This document shows, piece after piece, positions 7,607-21,052 of a DNA stretch of 49,721 nucleotides. Source of the DNA: an uncultured Pedobacter sp. (GTDB lineage Bacteria > Bacteroidota > Bacteroidia > Sphingobacteriales > Sphingobacteriaceae). Below the pieces are notes generated by a model. The model had not been told where the DNA came from. It saw only the letters and a program-made list of their open reading frames with translations, and made no database searches. The stretch is taken from the NCBI RefSeq assembly GCF_913776295.1, contig NZ_CAJYOJ010000003.1, positions 1 to 49,721 on the forward strand, given 5' to 3'. The stretch's first letter is position 1; each line of letters begins with the position of its first letter. A program made the translations under genes and the position numbers.

Positions 7607-8647
7607 TTAAGTCTTCGTCTCTTGTTTTTCGTCAGTTATGTCATATTGTTTGTAGGTCTGTTCTAAACGGCGTTTGATCTTAGCAATCAGCAACCTTGGC
7701 GACCGCACTTTAACACACTCCCCAAAACCTAAGATTTCGCGCTCCAGTTCATAATTCAGCACAACATCAATCCTGATCGTAGTCGTACTGGCATTTTTAT
7801 TTAACACCACCTGCGAAGTGTGTAAAGGTTTGGTCATGACATAAGGGGCATGGTCATTCGTAAATTCCAGAATCACTTTTTGTGGCCGGTCTCTTTCGCT
7901 TTTGGTTACCCCAATTAAATCATCATAATAACGATCGAAATCTACTCCTTCATACGCGACAAAAGTTTCATTTGGCAATTCCTGAAATTCAACAATACGA
8001 TCCAAGGCCAGATTTAAGATTCCAGGCCGTTTTTTAGCCTTACAGATCAAAAACCACCGATTGCGATACTCTTTTAACAGGTATGGAAAATAAATGCCCT
8101 GCTGGGCCTGTTGTGCCTTGAATGATTTATATTCAATCAATAGTGAACGTTTATTTAGAACCGCCTGGTAAAGCGGCGGGATACATTCCAGCCCTTTCAC
8201 CAGCTTATTGCTTTCCAACTGGATGTTGTTACCACTCTGTTTGGTCGATTTGTAAAGGTTGTTCTCTAAACGGGCAATCATATCGCTCATCTCGTCGAAG
8301 TAATTGAAGGCATTAAACTGCTTGAGTACGCCCACAATTTCTTTCATTTTATCTACATCGGCATGGTTAATGGGTGCTTTTGTAATGCTGAACCCAGGAT
8401 CTTCGTAAGCGTAAAACCGTTTATCCTTAACTATAATAGGCGCATTGTAACCCAGCTTATCGCTTCGCATCAGCTGAATATCGGCCTGTATGGTCCGCTT
8501 ACTTACTCCACTGGTAATGCCTTCCAACTCATAAAGGGTTTCGGCAACCTTTTCAATCAGATCATCAAGCGTCCATTTGCGAAAGCGGTTTCGCAAACAA
8601 TCGTCGATGGTTTTGTAACGGATAAGGGCTAATTTATTGATGGCCAT
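7607..8647 (-). CDS. WYL-domain transcriptional regulator (divergent from the RNA-repair operon)
   Basis: A 346-residue regulator with an N-terminal winged helix region (residues about 1-75: YELEGITSGVSKRTIQADIQ is the recognition segment) and a central WYL domain (SLLIEYKSFKAQQAQQGIYF ... YLLKEYRNRWFLICK). A C-terminal WCX-like segment begins near residue 245. WYL domains sense ligands, often nucleic acids or nucleotides, and regulate DNA-repair, CRISPR and anti-phage genes. The gene is divergent from the SPFH-NTase-RtcB operon across 1 kb of non-coding DNA, and palindromic GCGCAATT sites lie at its promoter, so it is the natural candidate regulator of that operon and of itself (inference). 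It may sense tRNA damage in place of RtcR, the usual RtcB-operon activator, which is absent here. Confidence 0.88.
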   Translation of the reverse strand: MAINKLALIRYKTIDDCLRNRFRKWTLDDLIEKVAETLYELEGITSGVSKRTIQADIQLMRSDKLGYNAPIIVKDKRFYAYEDPGFSITKAPINHADVDKMKEIVGVLKQFNAFNYFDEMSDMIARLENNLYKSTKQSGNNIQLESNKLVKGLECIPPLYQAVLNKRSLLIEYKSFKAQQAQQGIYFPYLLKEYRNRWFLICKAKKRPGILNLALDRIVEFQELPNETFVAYEGVDFDRYYDDLIGVTKSERDRPQKVILEFTNDHAPYVMTKPLHTSQVVLNKNASTTTIRIDVVLNYELEREILGFGECVKVRSPRLLIAKIKRRLEQTYKQYDITDEKQETKT

Positions 8648-8728: not shown

Positions 8729-8744
8729 TACAATTGCGCAATTG
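8721..8744. promoter_or_regulatory. Candidate operator 1 (perfect palindrome)
   Basis: CAATTGCGCAATTG at 8731-8744 is a perfect 14-bp palindrome. It is preceded by the related CTACGCAATA (8721-8730). Together with the second site at 8831 there are three ACGCAAT/GCGCAAT copies in the WYL-operon intergenic region. It is proposed to bind the WYL regulator; this is inference. Confidence 0.45.
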
Positions 8745-8830: not shown

Positions 8831-8853
8831 AACTGCGCAATTCCTCCGCGCAG
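8831..8853. promoter_or_regulatory. Candidate operator 2 (CTGCGC...GCGCAG)
   Basis: CTGCGC (8833-8838) and GCGCAG (8848-8853) form an interrupted palindrome. Its left part, CTGCGCAATT, matches nine of ten bases of TTGCGCAATT in operator 1. It overlaps the -33 position of a possible rightward promoter. Confidence 0.4.
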
Positions 8854-8870
8854 GGCTGGTGGCATCTTTG
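8841..8870 (+). promoter_or_regulatory. Candidate promoter of the RNA-repair leader/operon
   Basis: TTC at 8841-8843, a 19-base spacer and CATCTTTG at 8863-8870 resemble the Bacteroidota TTG-N19-TAnnTTTG promoter, with one mismatch in each box. Transcription from here would include all structured RNA elements and the operon. Confidence 0.3.
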
Positions 8871-8922
8871 TCATGTCGCCAGTCGGTGATGAAGTTCTTT
8901 GAAAAATATTAATAATAAACAA

Positions 8923-9069
8923 CTGATTTACAGCAAAAGTAAACTGTTTGAATAATACGCGCTCTCATGGGTACTACTCAATTTCCGAGTAGTACTTTAT
9001 ACGAAGCCCCCTGTTCCGGATCTGCGGAACAGGGTTAACGGCAGCATTTAAACAGTTTGAGTAAATCAG
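8923..9069 (+). ncRNA. Nested multibranch structured RNA in the RNA-repair leader
   Basis: Four perfectly complementary pairs nest within 147 bases. The outer stem is CTGATTTAC (8923-8931) with GTAAATCAG (9061-9069). The second stem is AAACTGTTT (8941-8949) with AAACAGTTT (9050-9058). Inside are two hairpins: GTACTACTC/GAGTAGTAC (8971-8995, 7-nt loop) and CCCTGTTCCG/CGGAACAGGG (9009-9034, loop GATCTG). No ORF explains the region. The ordered nesting argues for a folded RNA rather than chance palindromes. The function is unknown: it could be a regulatory leader or a scaffold RNA for the SPFH or RtcB proteins. The strand is inferred from the operon direction, since the fold is nearly symmetric. 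Confidence 0.6.
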
Positions 9070-9080
9070 TACATAAAGAA

Positions 9081-9101
9081 ATTCCGGTTAATAACCGGAA
9101 T
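9081..9101 (+). other. Perfect 9-bp hairpin
   Basis: ATTCCGGTT (9081-9089), loop AAT, AACCGGAAT (9093-9101). It sits between the multibranch RNA and the tRNA-like units. It has no T-run, so it is not a standard terminator; it may be a processing site or a further part of the structured leader. Confidence 0.55.
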
Positions 9102-9195
9102 GGCAACACTACCCCAAAATGATCCCTGTTGACGGTTTCTGTATAGCCCCAAAGTATTTATGCAATAGCATGAAATATACTGGTCAGGATGGTGA

Positions 9196-9203
9196 TAGTT
9201 TTG
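9196..9203 (+). promoter_or_regulatory. -7 promoter box directly upstream of the permuted tRNA-like RNA
   Basis: TAGTTTTG matches TAnnTTTG exactly. A start site a few bases downstream would place the RNA 5' end at about 9207-9212, just before the anticodon-stem strand GTTGT (9213). No good -33 box is seen 19-21 bases upstream, so activation or another promoter may be needed. Confidence 0.4.
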
Positions 9204-9212
9204 TCTGAACAC

Positions 9213-9282
9213 GTTGTGTGCCGTGGGTTCGAATCCCACTTTCGGAGCAATCCGGAATAGCTCAGTTGGTTAGAGCAACAAC
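9213..9282 (+). ncRNA. Circularly permuted tRNA-like RNA 1
   Basis: The 3' half of a tRNA precedes its 5' half. In order: anticodon-stem 3' strand GTTGT (9213-9217), variable loop GTGCC, T-arm GTGGG-TTCGAAT-CCCAC (9223-9239), acceptor 3' strand TTTCGGA (9240-9246), linker GCAA, acceptor 5' strand TCCGGAA (9251-9257), TA, D-arm GCTC-AGTTGGTTA-GAGC (9260-9276), A, anticodon-stem 5' strand ACAAC (9278-9282). All stems pair: acceptor 7 bp with one G-U, D 4, anticodon 5, T 5. U8, A14, G18G19, A21, the T-loop and the 15-48 pair are kept. In normal order (9251-9317) the acceptor stem fails and there is no anticodon arm. The acceptor is capped by GCAA, a GNRA tetraloop, and the open ends lie in the anticodon loop. 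This is probably the tRNA-like partner of the downstream SPFH/RtcB system. Confidence 0.85.
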
Positions 9283-9290
9283 CCCAAAGT

Positions 9291-9361
9291 GCAGGTTCGA
9301 ATCCTGCTTCCAACTCAACCTTGGAATCGCATAAGGGTAGTGCAATGGATTTAGGTTCCAT
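9291..9361 (+). ncRNA. Circularly permuted tRNA-like RNA 2
   Basis: It starts with the T-arm GCAGG-TTCGAAT-CCTGC (9291-9307), then the acceptor 3' strand TTCCAAC (9308-9314), a short linker, the acceptor 5' strand CTTGGAA (9320-9326, six of seven pairs), TC, D-arm GCAT-AAGGGTA-GTGC (9329-9343, one G-U), A, and a complete anticodon arm ATGGA-TTTAGGT-TCCAT (9345-9361) with loop triplet TAG. The open point is in the variable region rather than the anticodon loop, so this unit is permuted differently from unit 1. The five bases before the T-arm (AAAGT, 9286-9290) can serve as the variable loop. A GAAG-AGATA-CTTC hairpin follows at 9369-9381. It is probably cotranscribed with unit 1 and the operon. 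Confidence 0.7.
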
Positions 9362-9671
9362 CTTAAAAGAAGAGATACTTCAAATTTCTCATGGATTAGC
9401 CTGTAAAACCACATTCTGCTTAACGGTTCTTTTATGTTCCTGAAAGGCAAATTTGCTTTTGCTTTGAAAATAAAACGATGAACGAACTGATTTAAAAGTC
9501 AGGTTATTTTAAACGTTAGAATCAATCCCCGGATTTCAGCTAACTGAAAAAATAATTTCACTCTTAAACACATCAGGATTCAATTTATTTCCGCAAAAAC
9601 CAAATGAATGTGCTTTTACAAGGCTTTGTAAGCAAAACAATTAAATAATTATAAATCTTAACATCAAAAAA
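9362..9671 (+). other. Non-coding leader between the tRNA-like units and the SPFH gene
   Basis: This holds the small hairpins GAAG-AGATA-CTTC (9369-9381) and TTTCAG-CTAA-CTGAAA (9534-9549) and an imperfect TTACAA/TTGTAA pair near 9615-9630. No ORF, promoter box or terminator is convincing here. It is likely the 5' untranslated region of the operon. Confidence 0.4.
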
Positions 9672-10769
9672 ATGAAAAGAGTAACCATTAACACCAATGA
9701 TGTTGGATTGGTGTTTAAAAGAGGAAAATTAAAAAGCGTACTGACATCAGGAACTTACTGGTTAGGTTTTGGAGAAGATATCAATTTGTACGACATGGGA
9801 AAAGACTATTTTTTCACCCTAGCAGAATTAGAAGTGCTGTTAACAAACACTGATTTTATTAACCTGGTGCATGTGGTAGATATAGCCGATAACGAGCTGG
9901 CACTGGTTTACCGAAACGGAAATTTCAAAAGTCTTTTAACTGCGGGCAAGCATGCCATCTGGAAAGGTTTGTCTGCATATCACTTTGTAAAAGTTAATAT
10001 TAGTAACATCAACATTGATGAGACGATCGATAAAAATTTATTAGAGAAAGTACCATTGTTAAATTATATCAGGGCTTATAAGGTGGAGTCATTTGAAAAA
10101 GCCTTATTATTTATTGATGGCAAATTTGAAAAGGTGATGGAAGCCGGAAACTATGTTTACTGGAAAAATGCGATTAATATCCAGGTTTTAAAAACCGATA
10201 TGAGACAATTGAACATGGAAATTATCGGCCAGGAAATCTTAACAAAGGATAAGGCACAATTGAGGGTAAACTTCAGTATTCAATATAAGGTTGATGACAT
10301 CATAAAAGCATTATTGGAAAACAAAGATTTTGATAAACAATTGTACATTACCATGCAATTGGCCTTAAGAGAGTCGGTTGGTTTGATGACTTTTGATGAA
10401 TTGATGGAAAGTAAGGAGAGAATTGCCAAACAAGTAATGGATTTAACCTTGGCTAAAGCAGCCGATTTGGGTGTAAAATTAACAAATTGTGGTGTTAAAG
10501 ATATTATTTTGCCAGGCGATGTGAAAGAGATTATGAACCAGGTTTTAGTTGCCGAAAAAAAGGCACAAGCCAATATCATTACCAGAAGAGAAGAAACGGC
10601 CTCCACCAGAAGTCTACTGAACACCGCCAAATTAATGGAAGAAAATTCGATGTTGTATAAGCTGAAAGAGATGGAGTACGTGGAGAAGATCGCGGAAAAG
10701 ATCAATAACATCAGTTTATCGGGCAGCGGCCAAATTGTGGATCAATTGAAGCAAATCTTTGTAAAATAA
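9672..10769 (+). CDS. SPFH/Band-7 (slipin-like) protein of the RNA-repair operon
   Basis: A 365-residue protein with no signal peptide or transmembrane segment, unlike most stomatins. The SPFH core runs from about residue 140 to 300 (QEILTKDKAQLRVNFSIQYK; LGVKLTNCGVKDIILPGDVK), followed by an Ala/Glu/Lys-rich helix (EIMNQVLVAEKKAQANIITR) typical of SPFH oligomers. The N-terminal part repeats one motif three times: near residues 11-35, 75-99 and 142-166, each of the form LVxxxGKxxxxLxxGxYxxW. SPFH/Band-7 proteins in RtcB operons have been proposed as scaffolds with a cognate tRNA-like RNA, which fits the RNA elements just upstream. The start ATG at 9672 follows an A-rich stretch without a Shine-Dalgarno site. 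It is the first gene of the operon. Confidence 0.9.
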   Translation: MKRVTINTNDVGLVFKRGKLKSVLTSGTYWLGFGEDINLYDMGKDYFFTLAELEVLLTNTDFINLVHVVDIADNELALVYRNGNFKSLLTAGKHAIWKGLSAYHFVKVNISNINIDETIDKNLLEKVPLLNYIRAYKVESFEKALLFIDGKFEKVMEAGNYVYWKNAINIQVLKTDMRQLNMEIIGQEILTKDKAQLRVNFSIQYKVDDIIKALLENKDFDKQLYITMQLALRESVGLMTFDELMESKERIAKQVMDLTLAKAADLGVKLTNCGVKDIILPGDVKEIMNQVLVAEKKAQANIITRREETASTRSLLNTAKLMEENSMLYKLKEMEYVEKIAEKINNISLSGSGQIVDQLKQIFVK

Positions 10770-10784
10770 ATTAAATTTAGAAGC

Positions 10785-10813
10785 CCCTGGCAGGTGAATG
10801 TTTCCTGCCAGGG
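10785..10813 (+). other. 10-bp hairpin between SPFH and NTase genes
   Basis: CCCTGGCAGG (10785-10794), loop TGAATGTTT, CCTGCCAGGG (10804-10813): a perfect stem. No T-run follows, so it is likely a processing or stability element that lets the SPFH and downstream genes be expressed at different levels. It ends 16 bases before the chosen NTase start. Confidence 0.7.
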
Positions 10814-10829
10814 ATTAATGAGGAATAAA

Positions 10830-11591
10830 ATGAAAAACACCATCATAAACAAGCTTGCAGAAATAGAAAAGGCAAATGGGATCAAGATATTATTTGCCTG
10901 CGAATCAGGTAGCCGGGGATGGGAATTTCCGTCACCAGACAGCGATTTTGATGTGCGTTTTATTTACGTACGCCAGATTAACCACTATCTCTCTATTTCA
11001 GAAAAGAGTGATCAATTGGGTTTTCCTATCAACGATGAACTTGATATTTACGGTTGGGATTTAAAGAAGGTACTGAAACTAATCCGAAAATCGAATACTA
11101 CACCGTTTGAGTGGCTACAATCGCCTATTGTGTATGAAGAACAAGATCATTTCAGAAATGAATTATGGACATTGTGCCAGTCGTATTTTAATCAAAAAAC
11201 AAATATTAACCACTATTTAGGAATAGCACATGGCGCATTGGAAACTGTTATAAATGGCGACGAAATCAAGATCAAAAAGCTGTTTTACATACTCCGTCCT
11301 TTGCTTTCTGCAAAGTGGTGTTTAGAGAAAAATGCGATTGCTCCAATGACCATTGGTCCACTTTTAAACTTAATGCCTGAGCACCTTCGAACATTGGTTA
11401 AAGATCTGATTATATTAAAATCTACTTCTGCTGAGGCATTTATAATCCAAATAGACCCAAAATTGCGCATATACATTGATGATGAATTTAAAAGTTGTGC
11501 TGAAAGAGCTAAAGCTCTGCCCAAACAGAGTTTTGATACAGAAATGCTTGATGCCTTCTTTAGAAGTACTATAAACCGTTATGACAATTAA
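10830..11591 (+). CDS. Nucleotidyltransferase 1 (COG3541-like, Pol-beta fold)
   Basis: A 253-residue predicted nucleotidyltransferase. The active-site pattern is FACESGSRGWEFPSPDSDFD (GS at 27-28, Asp at 39 and 41), with a third carboxylate probably in NDELDIYGWD near residue 70. It belongs to the YcgL-like group that recurs with RNA ligases in repair operons, where a role in adding nucleotides to or repairing RNA ends before sealing has been proposed. I chose the ATG at 10830, preceded by AGGAAT, a clear Shine-Dalgarno-like site. A GTG at 10794 would lie within the hairpin. It overlaps the next NTase gene by 11 bases, so the two are translationally coupled. Confidence 0.85.
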   Translation: MKNTIINKLAEIEKANGIKILFACESGSRGWEFPSPDSDFDVRFIYVRQINHYLSISEKSDQLGFPINDELDIYGWDLKKVLKLIRKSNTTPFEWLQSPIVYEEQDHFRNELWTLCQSYFNQKTNINHYLGIAHGALETVINGDEIKIKKLFYILRPLLSAKWCLEKNAIAPMTIGPLLNLMPEHLRTLVKDLIILKSTSAEAFIIQIDPKLRIYIDDEFKSCAERAKALPKQSFDTEMLDAFFRSTINRYDN

Positions 11592-20818: not shown

Positions 20819-21052
20819 TTGATTACAAAGATTTTGGTGACTTCACCGATTAATCAATTAATGTTTATTTGAAAAGCAGTTTCGGTAATACTATTAAGGT
20901 CAGTCCTGCTATCCACTTCAATCTTTTTAAGCATGACAGTTAATTACAGCTACAGCTAAAAAAGTATTTCCGTTTCTATCAGGTTTAGCTTGCAAAAGCA
21001 GTGGTTAATCGGTTTCTTTTCCTCTCTGAGCAATACATTGATGCAATGATTC
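20819..21052. repeat. argB/proC spacer with decayed intergenic repeat
   Basis: CAGTCCTGCTATCCACTT (20901-20918), GCATGACAG and TTCCGTTTCTATCAGG match a dispersed repeat family related to 4050-4140. No ORF is supported. Confidence 0.45.

What the first reader, a model, noticed from the sequence alone, without database searches (positions are those of the whole stretch)
9213..9282. Circularly permuted tRNA-like RNA with ends in the anticodon loop
Read in normal order (9251-9317) this is a broken tRNA with no anticodon arm and mismatched acceptor ends. Read as 3' half then 5' half, every stem closes: anticodon strands GTTGT (9213) and ACAAC (9278) are perfect complements, acceptor strands TTTCGGA and TCCGGAA pair over 7 bp with one G-U, and the D and T arms are perfect. 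The acceptor ends are joined by GCAA, a GNRA tetraloop. The tRNA signature bases U8, A14, G18G19, A21, G15-C48 and the T-loop are kept. The molecule resembles a tRNA cut in the anticodon loop, the damage that RtcB seals, so it could be a sensor, decoy, guide or RtcB substrate that becomes circular after ligation.
Basis: partly seen in the sequence, partly recalled or inferred. Interest (0 to 1): 0.96.

Follow-up and report, generated by a model that had tools for sequence, protein, structure and literature searches.

The report
Tandem permuted tRNA decoy RNA
Beside a set of RNA-repair genes, a bacterium carries a conserved stretch, predicted to be transcribed, whose structure holds two rearranged tRNA shapes with closed ends, likely decoys for enzymes that cut or mend tRNAs.

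Summary
In detail: window 9213-9282 reads as a tRNA permuted at the anticodon loop. It is also incomplete. A second permuted tRNA mimic follows at 9291-9361, opened in the variable region, so its anticodon arm is a closed hairpin. A conserved 5' domain precedes them and a predicted pseudoknot follows. On 26 diverse sequences, 34 of 39 pairs show two-sided changes and 95.4% of cells pair; no shuffle matched. The element lies upstream of slipin, often with RtcB, in many Bacteroidota. Module 1 has the order of the tRNA-like module of YrlA, a bacterial Y RNA already known as a circular permutation of tRNA; but the Rsr-binding stem and rsr gene are missing and the score is below cut-off. Module 2's anticodon arm differs between species and copies real tRNA loops more often than shuffled triplets do. 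Some relatives carry a tRNA array upstream, or a Ro60 gene nearby. Best reading: a Y-RNA-like tRNA-decoy RNA of an RNA-repair system, a new variant of a known kind. I found no support for free ends or RtcB circularisation. A tRNA-like RNA of SPFH repair operons is, as I recall, prior art.

The parts
9213..9282 (+). Module 1: tRNA mimic permuted at the anticodon loop (T arm, acceptor hairpin capped by GCAA, D arm, closing anticodon stem); same order as the YrlA tRNA-like module
   Evidence: (RF02553 at 9215-9281, 35.5 bits, E 7.6e-6, cut-off 69)
9283..9290 (+). Linker between the modules, variable between species
9291..9361 (+). Module 2: tRNA mimic permuted in the variable region (T arm 9291-9307, acceptor 9308-9313/9321-9326, D arm 9329-9343, complete anticodon hairpin)
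9345..9361 (+). Anticodon-arm hairpin of module 2, ATGGA-TTTAGGT-TCCAT (triplet UAG); loop identity differs between species
9366..9390 (+). Predicted H-type pseudoknot (AAAG/GAAG with CTTY, second stem crossing); weak in the window itself
9134..9148 (+). 5'-domain hairpin with conserved loop TTTCTGTATAG; stem covaries in relatives, only 2 bp in the window
9153..9181 (+). Second 5'-domain hairpin, AGTAT...ATACT
   Evidence: pairing read by eye
9082..9100 (+). Upstream hairpin TTCCGGTT-AAT-AACCGGAA (CCC-GAAA-GGG in many relatives)
   Evidence: by eye
8864..8902 (+). Promoter-like pair of boxes ATCTTTGT ... GTTCTTTGA, recurring in Pedobacter and Sphingobacterium loci
   Evidence: promoter function inferred
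7607..8647 (-). WYL/WCX-domain regulator, divergent
9672..10769 (+). SPFH/Band-7 slipin
10794..11591 (+). RlaP nucleotidyltransferase
   Evidence: 233.3 bits
11581..12642 (+). Second RlaP-like nucleotidyltransferase
   Evidence: 74.6 bits
12654..14078 (+). RtcB RNA ligase; the only gene of this genome matched by PF01139

Best explanation
Upstream of a slipin-RlaP-RtcB gene set lies a conserved RNA structure, predicted to be transcribed, that carries two tandem tRNA mimics whose acceptor ends are closed by loops, and it likely works as a tRNA decoy that would show a copied anticodon loop to anticodon-cutting or tRNA-mending enzymes. Shown: the permuted cloverleaves, their covariation, the linkage to slipin and often RtcB, the closed acceptors, and the tRNA-like, changing anticodon loops of module 2. 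Inferred: module 1, of the YrlA type, docks tRNA-elbow-binding proteins as Y RNAs do. Module 2 offers an anticodon loop of a threatened tRNA (Leu, Lys, Asn and others). With closed acceptors neither could be charged or used in translation, so a cut there would cost the cell little. A cut decoy would be a substrate and possibly a signal for the RtcB/RlaP machinery, perhaps held on the slipin assembly. The RNA is probably made as the leader of the operon transcript, perhaps under the divergent WYL regulator.
For: Covariation of all 8 helices in both modules. Of 11 genomes with model hits of at least 100 bits among 295 class genomes, 10 have the hit on the slipin strand, 262 to 947 bases upstream of the slipin match; slipin occurs in 18 of 295 (two of the 11, G000 and G097, are in the model). 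The eleventh, G321, keeps the RNA and an RtcB gene with only a slipin C-terminal remnant. RtcB is near in 49 of 65 long loci. In 70-base segments after the last D arm of 96 distinct loci, hairpins of 5 bp/7 nt with U33 and purine 37 number 81; 200 shuffles average 3.5 and reach at most 9. Of the 81, 8 are T arms and 9 belong to the pseudoknot; 64 in 55 loci remain. Of 44 such arms right after the D arm, 17 have exactly a tRNA loop of the window's genome; triplet-shuffled mean 5.8, maximum 13, 0 of 2000 as high. D-arm type goes with loop type: 14 of 17 TAGCTCA arms carry CNNNTAA loops, 8 of 12 TGGC arms carry TTNGGN loops (classes set after seeing the data). Of 80 loci, 17 have at least 4 tRNA genes in the 6 kb upstream. 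In Zobellia the 13 array tRNAs all duplicate anticodons found among 39 tRNAs elsewhere.
Against: No transcript, protein partner or nuclease has been seen. Some loops carry triplets that are not ordinary bacterial anticodons as far as I know (AGG in 6 of 50, five of them Pedobacter; AAG in 1). No strict 5 bp/7 nt arm was found at that place in 47 of 97 loci (some have shorter arms, and in some the finder stopped at module 1), so drift or loss may be common. The window's own loop TTTAGGT is not an exact loop of the genome's tRNAs (its Leu UAG loop is CTTAGGA). Module 1 has no anticodon loop, so the bait idea covers only module 2. C48, kept in 66 of 76 first modules, is present in only 20 of 76 second modules. 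Shared ancestry is not removed by any control. In Salmonella no fragments of YrlA were detected when tRNAs were cut, although the authors suggest its tRNA-like domain could be a competitive inhibitor (passages of PMC7790460).
Confidence: 0.42

Rival explanations
1. A Y-RNA-like scaffold: the tandem tRNA-like modules tether tRNA-binding or RNA-processing proteins (RtcB, RlaP, PNPase, Ro60 where present) to the slipin assembly, and the anticodon loops are incidental.
For: Module 1 matches the tRNA-like part of YrlA below cut-off in the window and YrlA matches occur in 4 of 5 other loci. Elbow bases not built into the finder are kept in module 1: purine 15 in 75, A21 in 75 and C48 in 66 of 76. 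Ro60 lies directly downstream of slipin in Kordia, and Ro60 relatives lie in two further loci of 80. YrlA is reported to tether Rsr to PNPase (passages of PMC8394870).
Against: No Rsr in the window's genome and no Rsr-binding stem matched (model positions 23-86 of 114). It does not explain why module 2 keeps U33, purine 37 and real anticodon loops.
Confidence: 0.3
2. A cis-acting leader: the structure is a 5' untranslated region that controls slipin-RlaP-RtcB expression, for instance by being cut or bound when tRNAs are damaged.
For: In the whole-genome search, 10 of 11 strong matches lie on the slipin strand shortly upstream of it; two searches looked only there, so they add nothing on position. 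Conservation runs in patches towards the slipin start; promoter-like boxes lie upstream; tRNA-like operators are known elsewhere (recalled).
Against: G321 keeps the RNA after losing most of slipin, though RtcB still lies downstream; two whole tRNA mimics are more than a leader switch usually needs (judgement).
Confidence: 0.2
3. Remains of a tRNA gene array that decayed next to the operon, without present function.
For: Related loci have tRNA arrays upstream; some loci have one degenerate module by eye or none by the finder.
Against: Compensatory changes in 34 of 39 pairs and the same permuted order across families need selection.
Confidence: 0.03
4. One reading: a linear RNA with ends in the anticodon loop that RtcB seals into a circle.
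For: The strands at 9213 and 9282 do face each other; RtcB is encoded nearby.
Against: Module 1 is joined to a conserved second module in 26 of 27 related genomes and to a conserved 5' domain. Processing signals were not looked for. The same order occurs in YrlA, which is not circular as far as I know.
Confidence: 0.04

Closest known systems
YrlA bacterial Y RNA (Rfam RF02553; PDB 6CU1)
   Same: Module 1 has the same circular permutation: outer stem, T arm, loop-closed acceptor hairpin, D arm, outer stem; YrlA too is encoded with rtcB in some bacteria (passages).
   Different: Two modules in tandem (three in L055 and L082 by the finder); score 35.5 against a cut-off of 69; no Rsr-binding stem matched; no rsr in the genome; added 5' domain, closed anticodon arm and predicted pseudoknot.
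tRNA-like RNA of SPFH/Band-7 RNA-repair systems (Burroughs and Aravind 2016, recalled; paper not held)
   Same: Probably the same class of molecule: a tRNA-like RNA beside SPFH and RNA-ligase genes.
   Different: Its text could not be read, so it is unknown whether the permutation, the tandem, the changing anticodon arm or the 5' and 3' domains were described.
Circularly permuted tRNA genes of algae and Thermofilum
   Same: 3' half encoded before the 5' half.
   Different: Those are processed to working tRNAs (recalled); the table of a 2014 review lists none in Bacteria (passages of PMC4033280). Here the acceptor strands are joined by a short loop and kept as hairpins.
tmRNA
   Same: tRNA-like part plus pseudoknot in one RNA.
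   Different: Only weak partial hits to RF00023 (16.2 bits against 47); ARAGORN finds no tmRNA; no tag reading frame was sought; closed acceptor.

Membership tests
YrlA (RF02553) | Rfam gathering score (69 bits) | tested here: not met
   35.5 bits in the window; best 46.8 in 5 other loci, none found in L111
YrlA (RF02553) | Permuted tRNA-like module with loop-closed acceptor hairpin | tested here: met
   model positions 23-86 aligned in order to 9215-9281; covariation
YrlA (RF02553) | Basal stem that binds Rsr/Ro60 | tested here: not met
   model positions 1-22 and 87-114 not matched in the window; weak whole-model matches in L083 and L085 at 31 bits
Ro60-associated Y RNA | rsr (TROVE) gene in the genome | tested here: not met
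   no PF05731 match in G000, one control genome rings; present in L098 and by tblastn in L066 and L051, 3 of 80 loci
Ro60-associated Y RNA | Physical binding to Ro60 and PNPase | not testable with these tools
   needs RNA pull-down
Permuted tRNA gene (algal or archaeal type) | Processed to a mature tRNA with a free CCA-bearing acceptor end | tested here: inconclusive
   acceptor strands are joined by 2-8 bases in module 1 and 2-10 in module 2 by the finder; no RNA data
SPFH-associated tRNA-like RNA (Burroughs and Aravind 2016, recalled) | tRNA-like RNA beside SPFH and RNA-ligase genes | tested here: met
   the published definition itself was not available
tmRNA | tmRNA covariance model and ARAGORN call | tested here: not met
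   16.2 bits against 47; no gene by ARAGORN

The most novel reading that the evidence does not exclude
A widespread Bacteroidota RNA of RNA-repair islands that wears interchangeable anticodon arms: it copies the anticodon loops of the tRNAs under attack, takes the cut in their place, and couples that cut to RtcB repair and, in some relatives, to a back-up tRNA array, making it a record of which tRNAs are targeted in each lineage.
Probability: 0.3. Interest if true: 0.92.

Novelty: new variant of a known kind. Interest (0 to 1): 0.74.

Why it matters
It ties three things together: the tRNA-like part of bacterial Y RNAs, the RtcB repair gene sets whose natural substrates are poorly known, and extra tRNA arrays. 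If module 2 is a bait, reading its triplets across Bacteroidota would predict which tRNAs anticodon nucleases attack in each lineage, which is directly testable. It also gives a large structured RNA that Rfam at its cut-offs sees only as a partial linear tRNA, with a ready covariance model.

Tried and rejected
Thermodynamic folding of 9170-9380: not informative, because the two T arms pair with each other. Model R1 below 100 bits in whole genomes (244 of 295 genomes have some match at E 1e-4): the two such matches that I read, G315 and G107, are runs of ordinary tRNA genes; the others were not read and not counted, except that six genomes with matches of 54-66 bits on the slipin strand 245-1128 bases upstream of slipin (G301, G232, G270, G306, G284, G352) are noted as likely true. 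Two slipin genomes, G099 and G349, have only one degenerate module by eye. Slipin relatives in viral contigs: none confirmed. A free pseudoknot scan (79 of 95 loci) had no control and is not used; one search replaces it. A small reading frame near 8874-8903 was considered for the conserved block and dropped in favour of promoter-like boxes; not tested. Loop classes were set after seeing the data and are illustrative only. The TTC and GG counts are built into the finder, and T8 and A14 gain score there; purine 15, A21 and C48 are not. The finder found a consecutive module pair in 82 of 107 upstream regions; of the 25 without one, several (for example L014, L029, L045, L046) show the tandem by eye, and 4 (L061, L070, L073, L075) have no module by the finder. 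Rows dropped before counts: duplicates of one sequence (97 distinct of 103, 76 distinct pairs), L031 (same locus as L032), L021 from the tandem alignment. The structure count used 26 chosen sequences of the 82 with a pair. tblastn with the window's proteins may miss diverged WYL, RlaP and RtcB.

Paper searches for prior art: (listings only; passages read in PMC7790460, PMC8394870, PMC4012209, PMC7824862, PMC6514570, PMC11472068, PMC4033280). None of the listings showed a tandem permuted tRNA-like RNA with slipin, but most subscription papers and the 2016 review are not held, so absence from print is not claimed.

Full report
What is there. Positions 9213-9282 encode, in order, the 3' strand of an anticodon stem, a five-base variable region, a T arm, the 3' acceptor strand, GCAA, the 5' acceptor strand, U8-A9, a D arm and the 5' strand of the anticodon stem. 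ARAGORN reports no tRNA or tmRNA in the window. Rfam's tRNA model matches the linear reading 9254-9311 with the anticodon arm skipped.

It is the YrlA order. In the sensitive Rfam search, RF02553 (YrlA, a bacterial Y RNA) matches 9215-9281 with 35.5 bits, E 7.6e-6, model positions 23-86 of 114, below its cut-off of 69. Its consensus structure line shows the same order: outer stem, T arm, acceptor hairpin closed by a loop, D arm, outer stem. Of five other loci searched, four have YrlA matches, 31 to 47 bits. Passages of PMC11472068 state that 81 of 99 permuted pairs in their set featured a bacterial Y RNA (PDB 6CU1) circularly superposed on tRNAs. So this kind of permutation in bacteria is known. 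What is not matched is the Rsr-binding end, and the genome has no TROVE match.

There is a second module. Directly downstream, 9291-9307 is another T arm, TTCCAA/TTGGAA with a seven-base cap is an acceptor hairpin, 9329-9343 is a D arm, and ATGGA-TTTAGGT-TCCAT is a complete anticodon hairpin. This copy is opened in the variable region instead of the anticodon loop. Of 99 genomes searched, 27 have the slipin gene, and 26 of these have both modules upstream of it; L021 has only the second.

Covariation. I aligned 26 diverse two-module sequences with MAFFT and counted a structure taken from the window: 39 pairs, 8 helices, 1005 cells. Paired cells: 95.4%, shuffled 76.4%. Pairs with two-sided changes: 34, shuffled 21.1. 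Cells with two-sided changes: 191, shuffled 45.8. Slid registers gave at most 46.6% and 35 cells. No shuffle of 500 reached any of the five observed values. The tool warns that such shuffles ignore relatedness; the slides keep it, but favour a structure taken from one of the sequences. The two acceptor helices, which close on themselves only if the permutation is real, have two-sided changes in all 12 pairs. The closed acceptor is therefore selected.

Extent of the RNA. Among the 27 loci, conservation runs from about 9115 to 9400 and in patches to the slipin start. A hairpin with loop TTTCNGTAT(A/G)G lies some 75-125 bases before the module-1 T loop. Among 60 distinct loci with the motif (of 103 with a module), its three loop-proximal pairs form in 57, 58 and 56, with GC, TA, AT and CG at the middle pair; total 195 of 240 cells against a shuffled mean of 140 and maximum of 154. 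In the window the stem is only two pairs. After module 2 comes a predicted H-type pseudoknot: in 56 anchored loci, a second stem of at least 4 Watson-Crick pairs occurs in 22, permuted mean 5.4, maximum 12 of 500 rounds. It is therefore shown for a part of the loci only. Upstream, ATCTTTGT...GTTCTTTGA boxes recur in Pedobacter and Sphingobacterium loci (pattern hit in 56 of 103 loci, some of them other matches).

Linkage. In 295 genomes of the class, slipin (E at most 1e-40) occurs in 18. Model R1, built from the 26 sequences, gives at least 100 bits in 11 genomes; two of these, G000 and G097, are in the model. In 10 of the 11 the match lies on the slipin strand, 262 to 947 bases upstream of the slipin match. 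The eleventh, G321, has both modules followed by a C-terminal remnant of slipin (GGSQVMDQLKAIFTK and stop), an unknown frame and an RtcB gene. Six more slipin genomes have matches of 54-66 bits at the right place, and two (G099, G349) have one degenerate module by eye. Among 65 named loci with enough flank, tblastn with the window's proteins finds RtcB in 49, WYL in 35, and each RlaP in 12. So RtcB, not the nucleotidyltransferases, is the usual partner of slipin here. Of ten frames from loci without an RtcB match that I scanned, one is Ro60 (Kordia, L098) and one a T4 Rnl1-type ligase (Taibaiella, L051); the other eight show no RNA-repair family. Ro60 relatives occur in 3 of 80 loci. The names are nearly all Bacteroidota; two records bear other names (L110, L111).

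The anticodon arm of module 2. Immediately after the last D arm, 50 of 97 distinct loci have a strict 5 bp/7 nt hairpin; 47 of 50 have U33, 47 of 50 a purine at 37, 44 both. In 70-base segments downstream, 96 distinct loci contain 81 hairpins with both marks; dinucleotide shuffles average 3.5 and never exceed 9 in 200. A recount shows that 8 of the 81 are T arms and 9 belong to the pseudoknot; 64 in 55 loci remain, 43 of them right after the D arm. The triplets of the 50 vary: UAG 12, UUU 8, GUU 6, AGG 6, UUG 3 and others. Of the 44 with both marks, 17 loops equal, in all seven bases, a tRNA loop of the window's genome; shuffling only the three triplet positions gives a mean of 5.8 and a maximum of 13 in 2000 rounds; counting each stem-loop once, 15 of 34 against 5.0 and 11. 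Eight loci share the stem CTACA/TGTAG with seven different loops. Several loci have a second anticodon-like hairpin behind the first, for instance L089 (GUU then CAA) and L097 (UUU then UAA). D-arm type and loop type go together. This looks like repeated take-over of real tRNA 5' halves or of their anticodons. Against: AGG and AAG triplets, the many loci without a strict arm, the rarity of C48 in module 2 (20 of 76), and shared ancestry, which no control here removes.

Extra tRNAs. In 17 of 80 loci, for example of Aquimarina, Zobellia, Kordia and Tenacibaculum, at least four tRNA genes lie in the 6 kb upstream; one of the 17, L073, has no module by the finder, and in some the nearest array gene is over 1 kb from the RNA. 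For Zobellia (L094, G354) I fetched the tRNA genes found: ARAGORN names 13 in the array and 39 elsewhere; all 13 anticodons also occur elsewhere, and the two array tRNA-Leu are 74 and 75 bases long against 83-85 for the same anticodons elsewhere. So there the array is not the cell's only set. The window has no such array.

How it most likely works. Closed acceptors would exclude aminoacylation, the elbow is kept, and module 2 often keeps a tRNA-like anticodon loop. With RtcB next door, the simplest reading is a decoy: it would be bound or cut by enzymes that attack anticodons, and mended or sensed by the operon. Module 1 would dock tRNA-binding proteins as in Y RNAs. Every step beyond the structure is inference. 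The Salmonella work (passages of PMC7790460) reports that an rtcBA operon that also encodes YrlA is activated when tRNA fragments accumulate, that no YrlA fragments were detected, and that its tRNA-like domain might inhibit the nuclease; it is a parallel, not proof.

Prior art. From memory, Burroughs and Aravind (2016) mention a novel tRNA-like RNA as partner of SPFH/Band-7 modules in RNA repair; the paper is not held, so I cannot say how far it goes. I therefore call this a new variant of a known kind.

Noticed in passing
L094, L098, L100, L103, L106 and others, 6 kb upstream of slipin: Arrays of tRNA genes on the same strand upstream of the RNA (17 of 80 loci with at least 4); in Zobellia they duplicate anticodons present elsewhere, and the tRNA-Leu copies are about 10 bases shorter, as if without the long variable arm.
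   Followed up: partly
L098:7434-8963; L066:3159-4682; L051:1977-3542: Ro60/TROVE gene beside the RNA in Kordia and tblastn relatives of it in the Chitinophaga and Taibaiella loci, although the window's genome has none.
   Followed up: partly
L203 (G321): The RNA is kept with an RtcB gene although slipin is reduced to a C-terminal remnant; an unknown 214-aa frame lies between.
   Followed up: partly
window 8834-8853 and near 8735: TGCGCA-type dyads near the WYL gene start and before the promoter-like boxes, also in many relatives; possibly the WYL operator.
   Followed up: no
window about 8912-9070: A stretch with inverted repeats, poorly conserved in the alignment, between the promoter-like boxes and the RNA; several relatives have a shorter gap here.
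   Followed up: no
L055, L082 (and L072): Three tRNA-like modules in a row by the finder (L072 by eye).
   Followed up: no
L068:8288-9127; L100:8040-8882: PRPP-synthetase-like genes downstream of slipin in two Aquimarina loci without an RtcB match.
   Followed up: no
window 20898-20990, minus strand: Flavo-1 RNA (RF01705, 58 bits).
   Followed up: no
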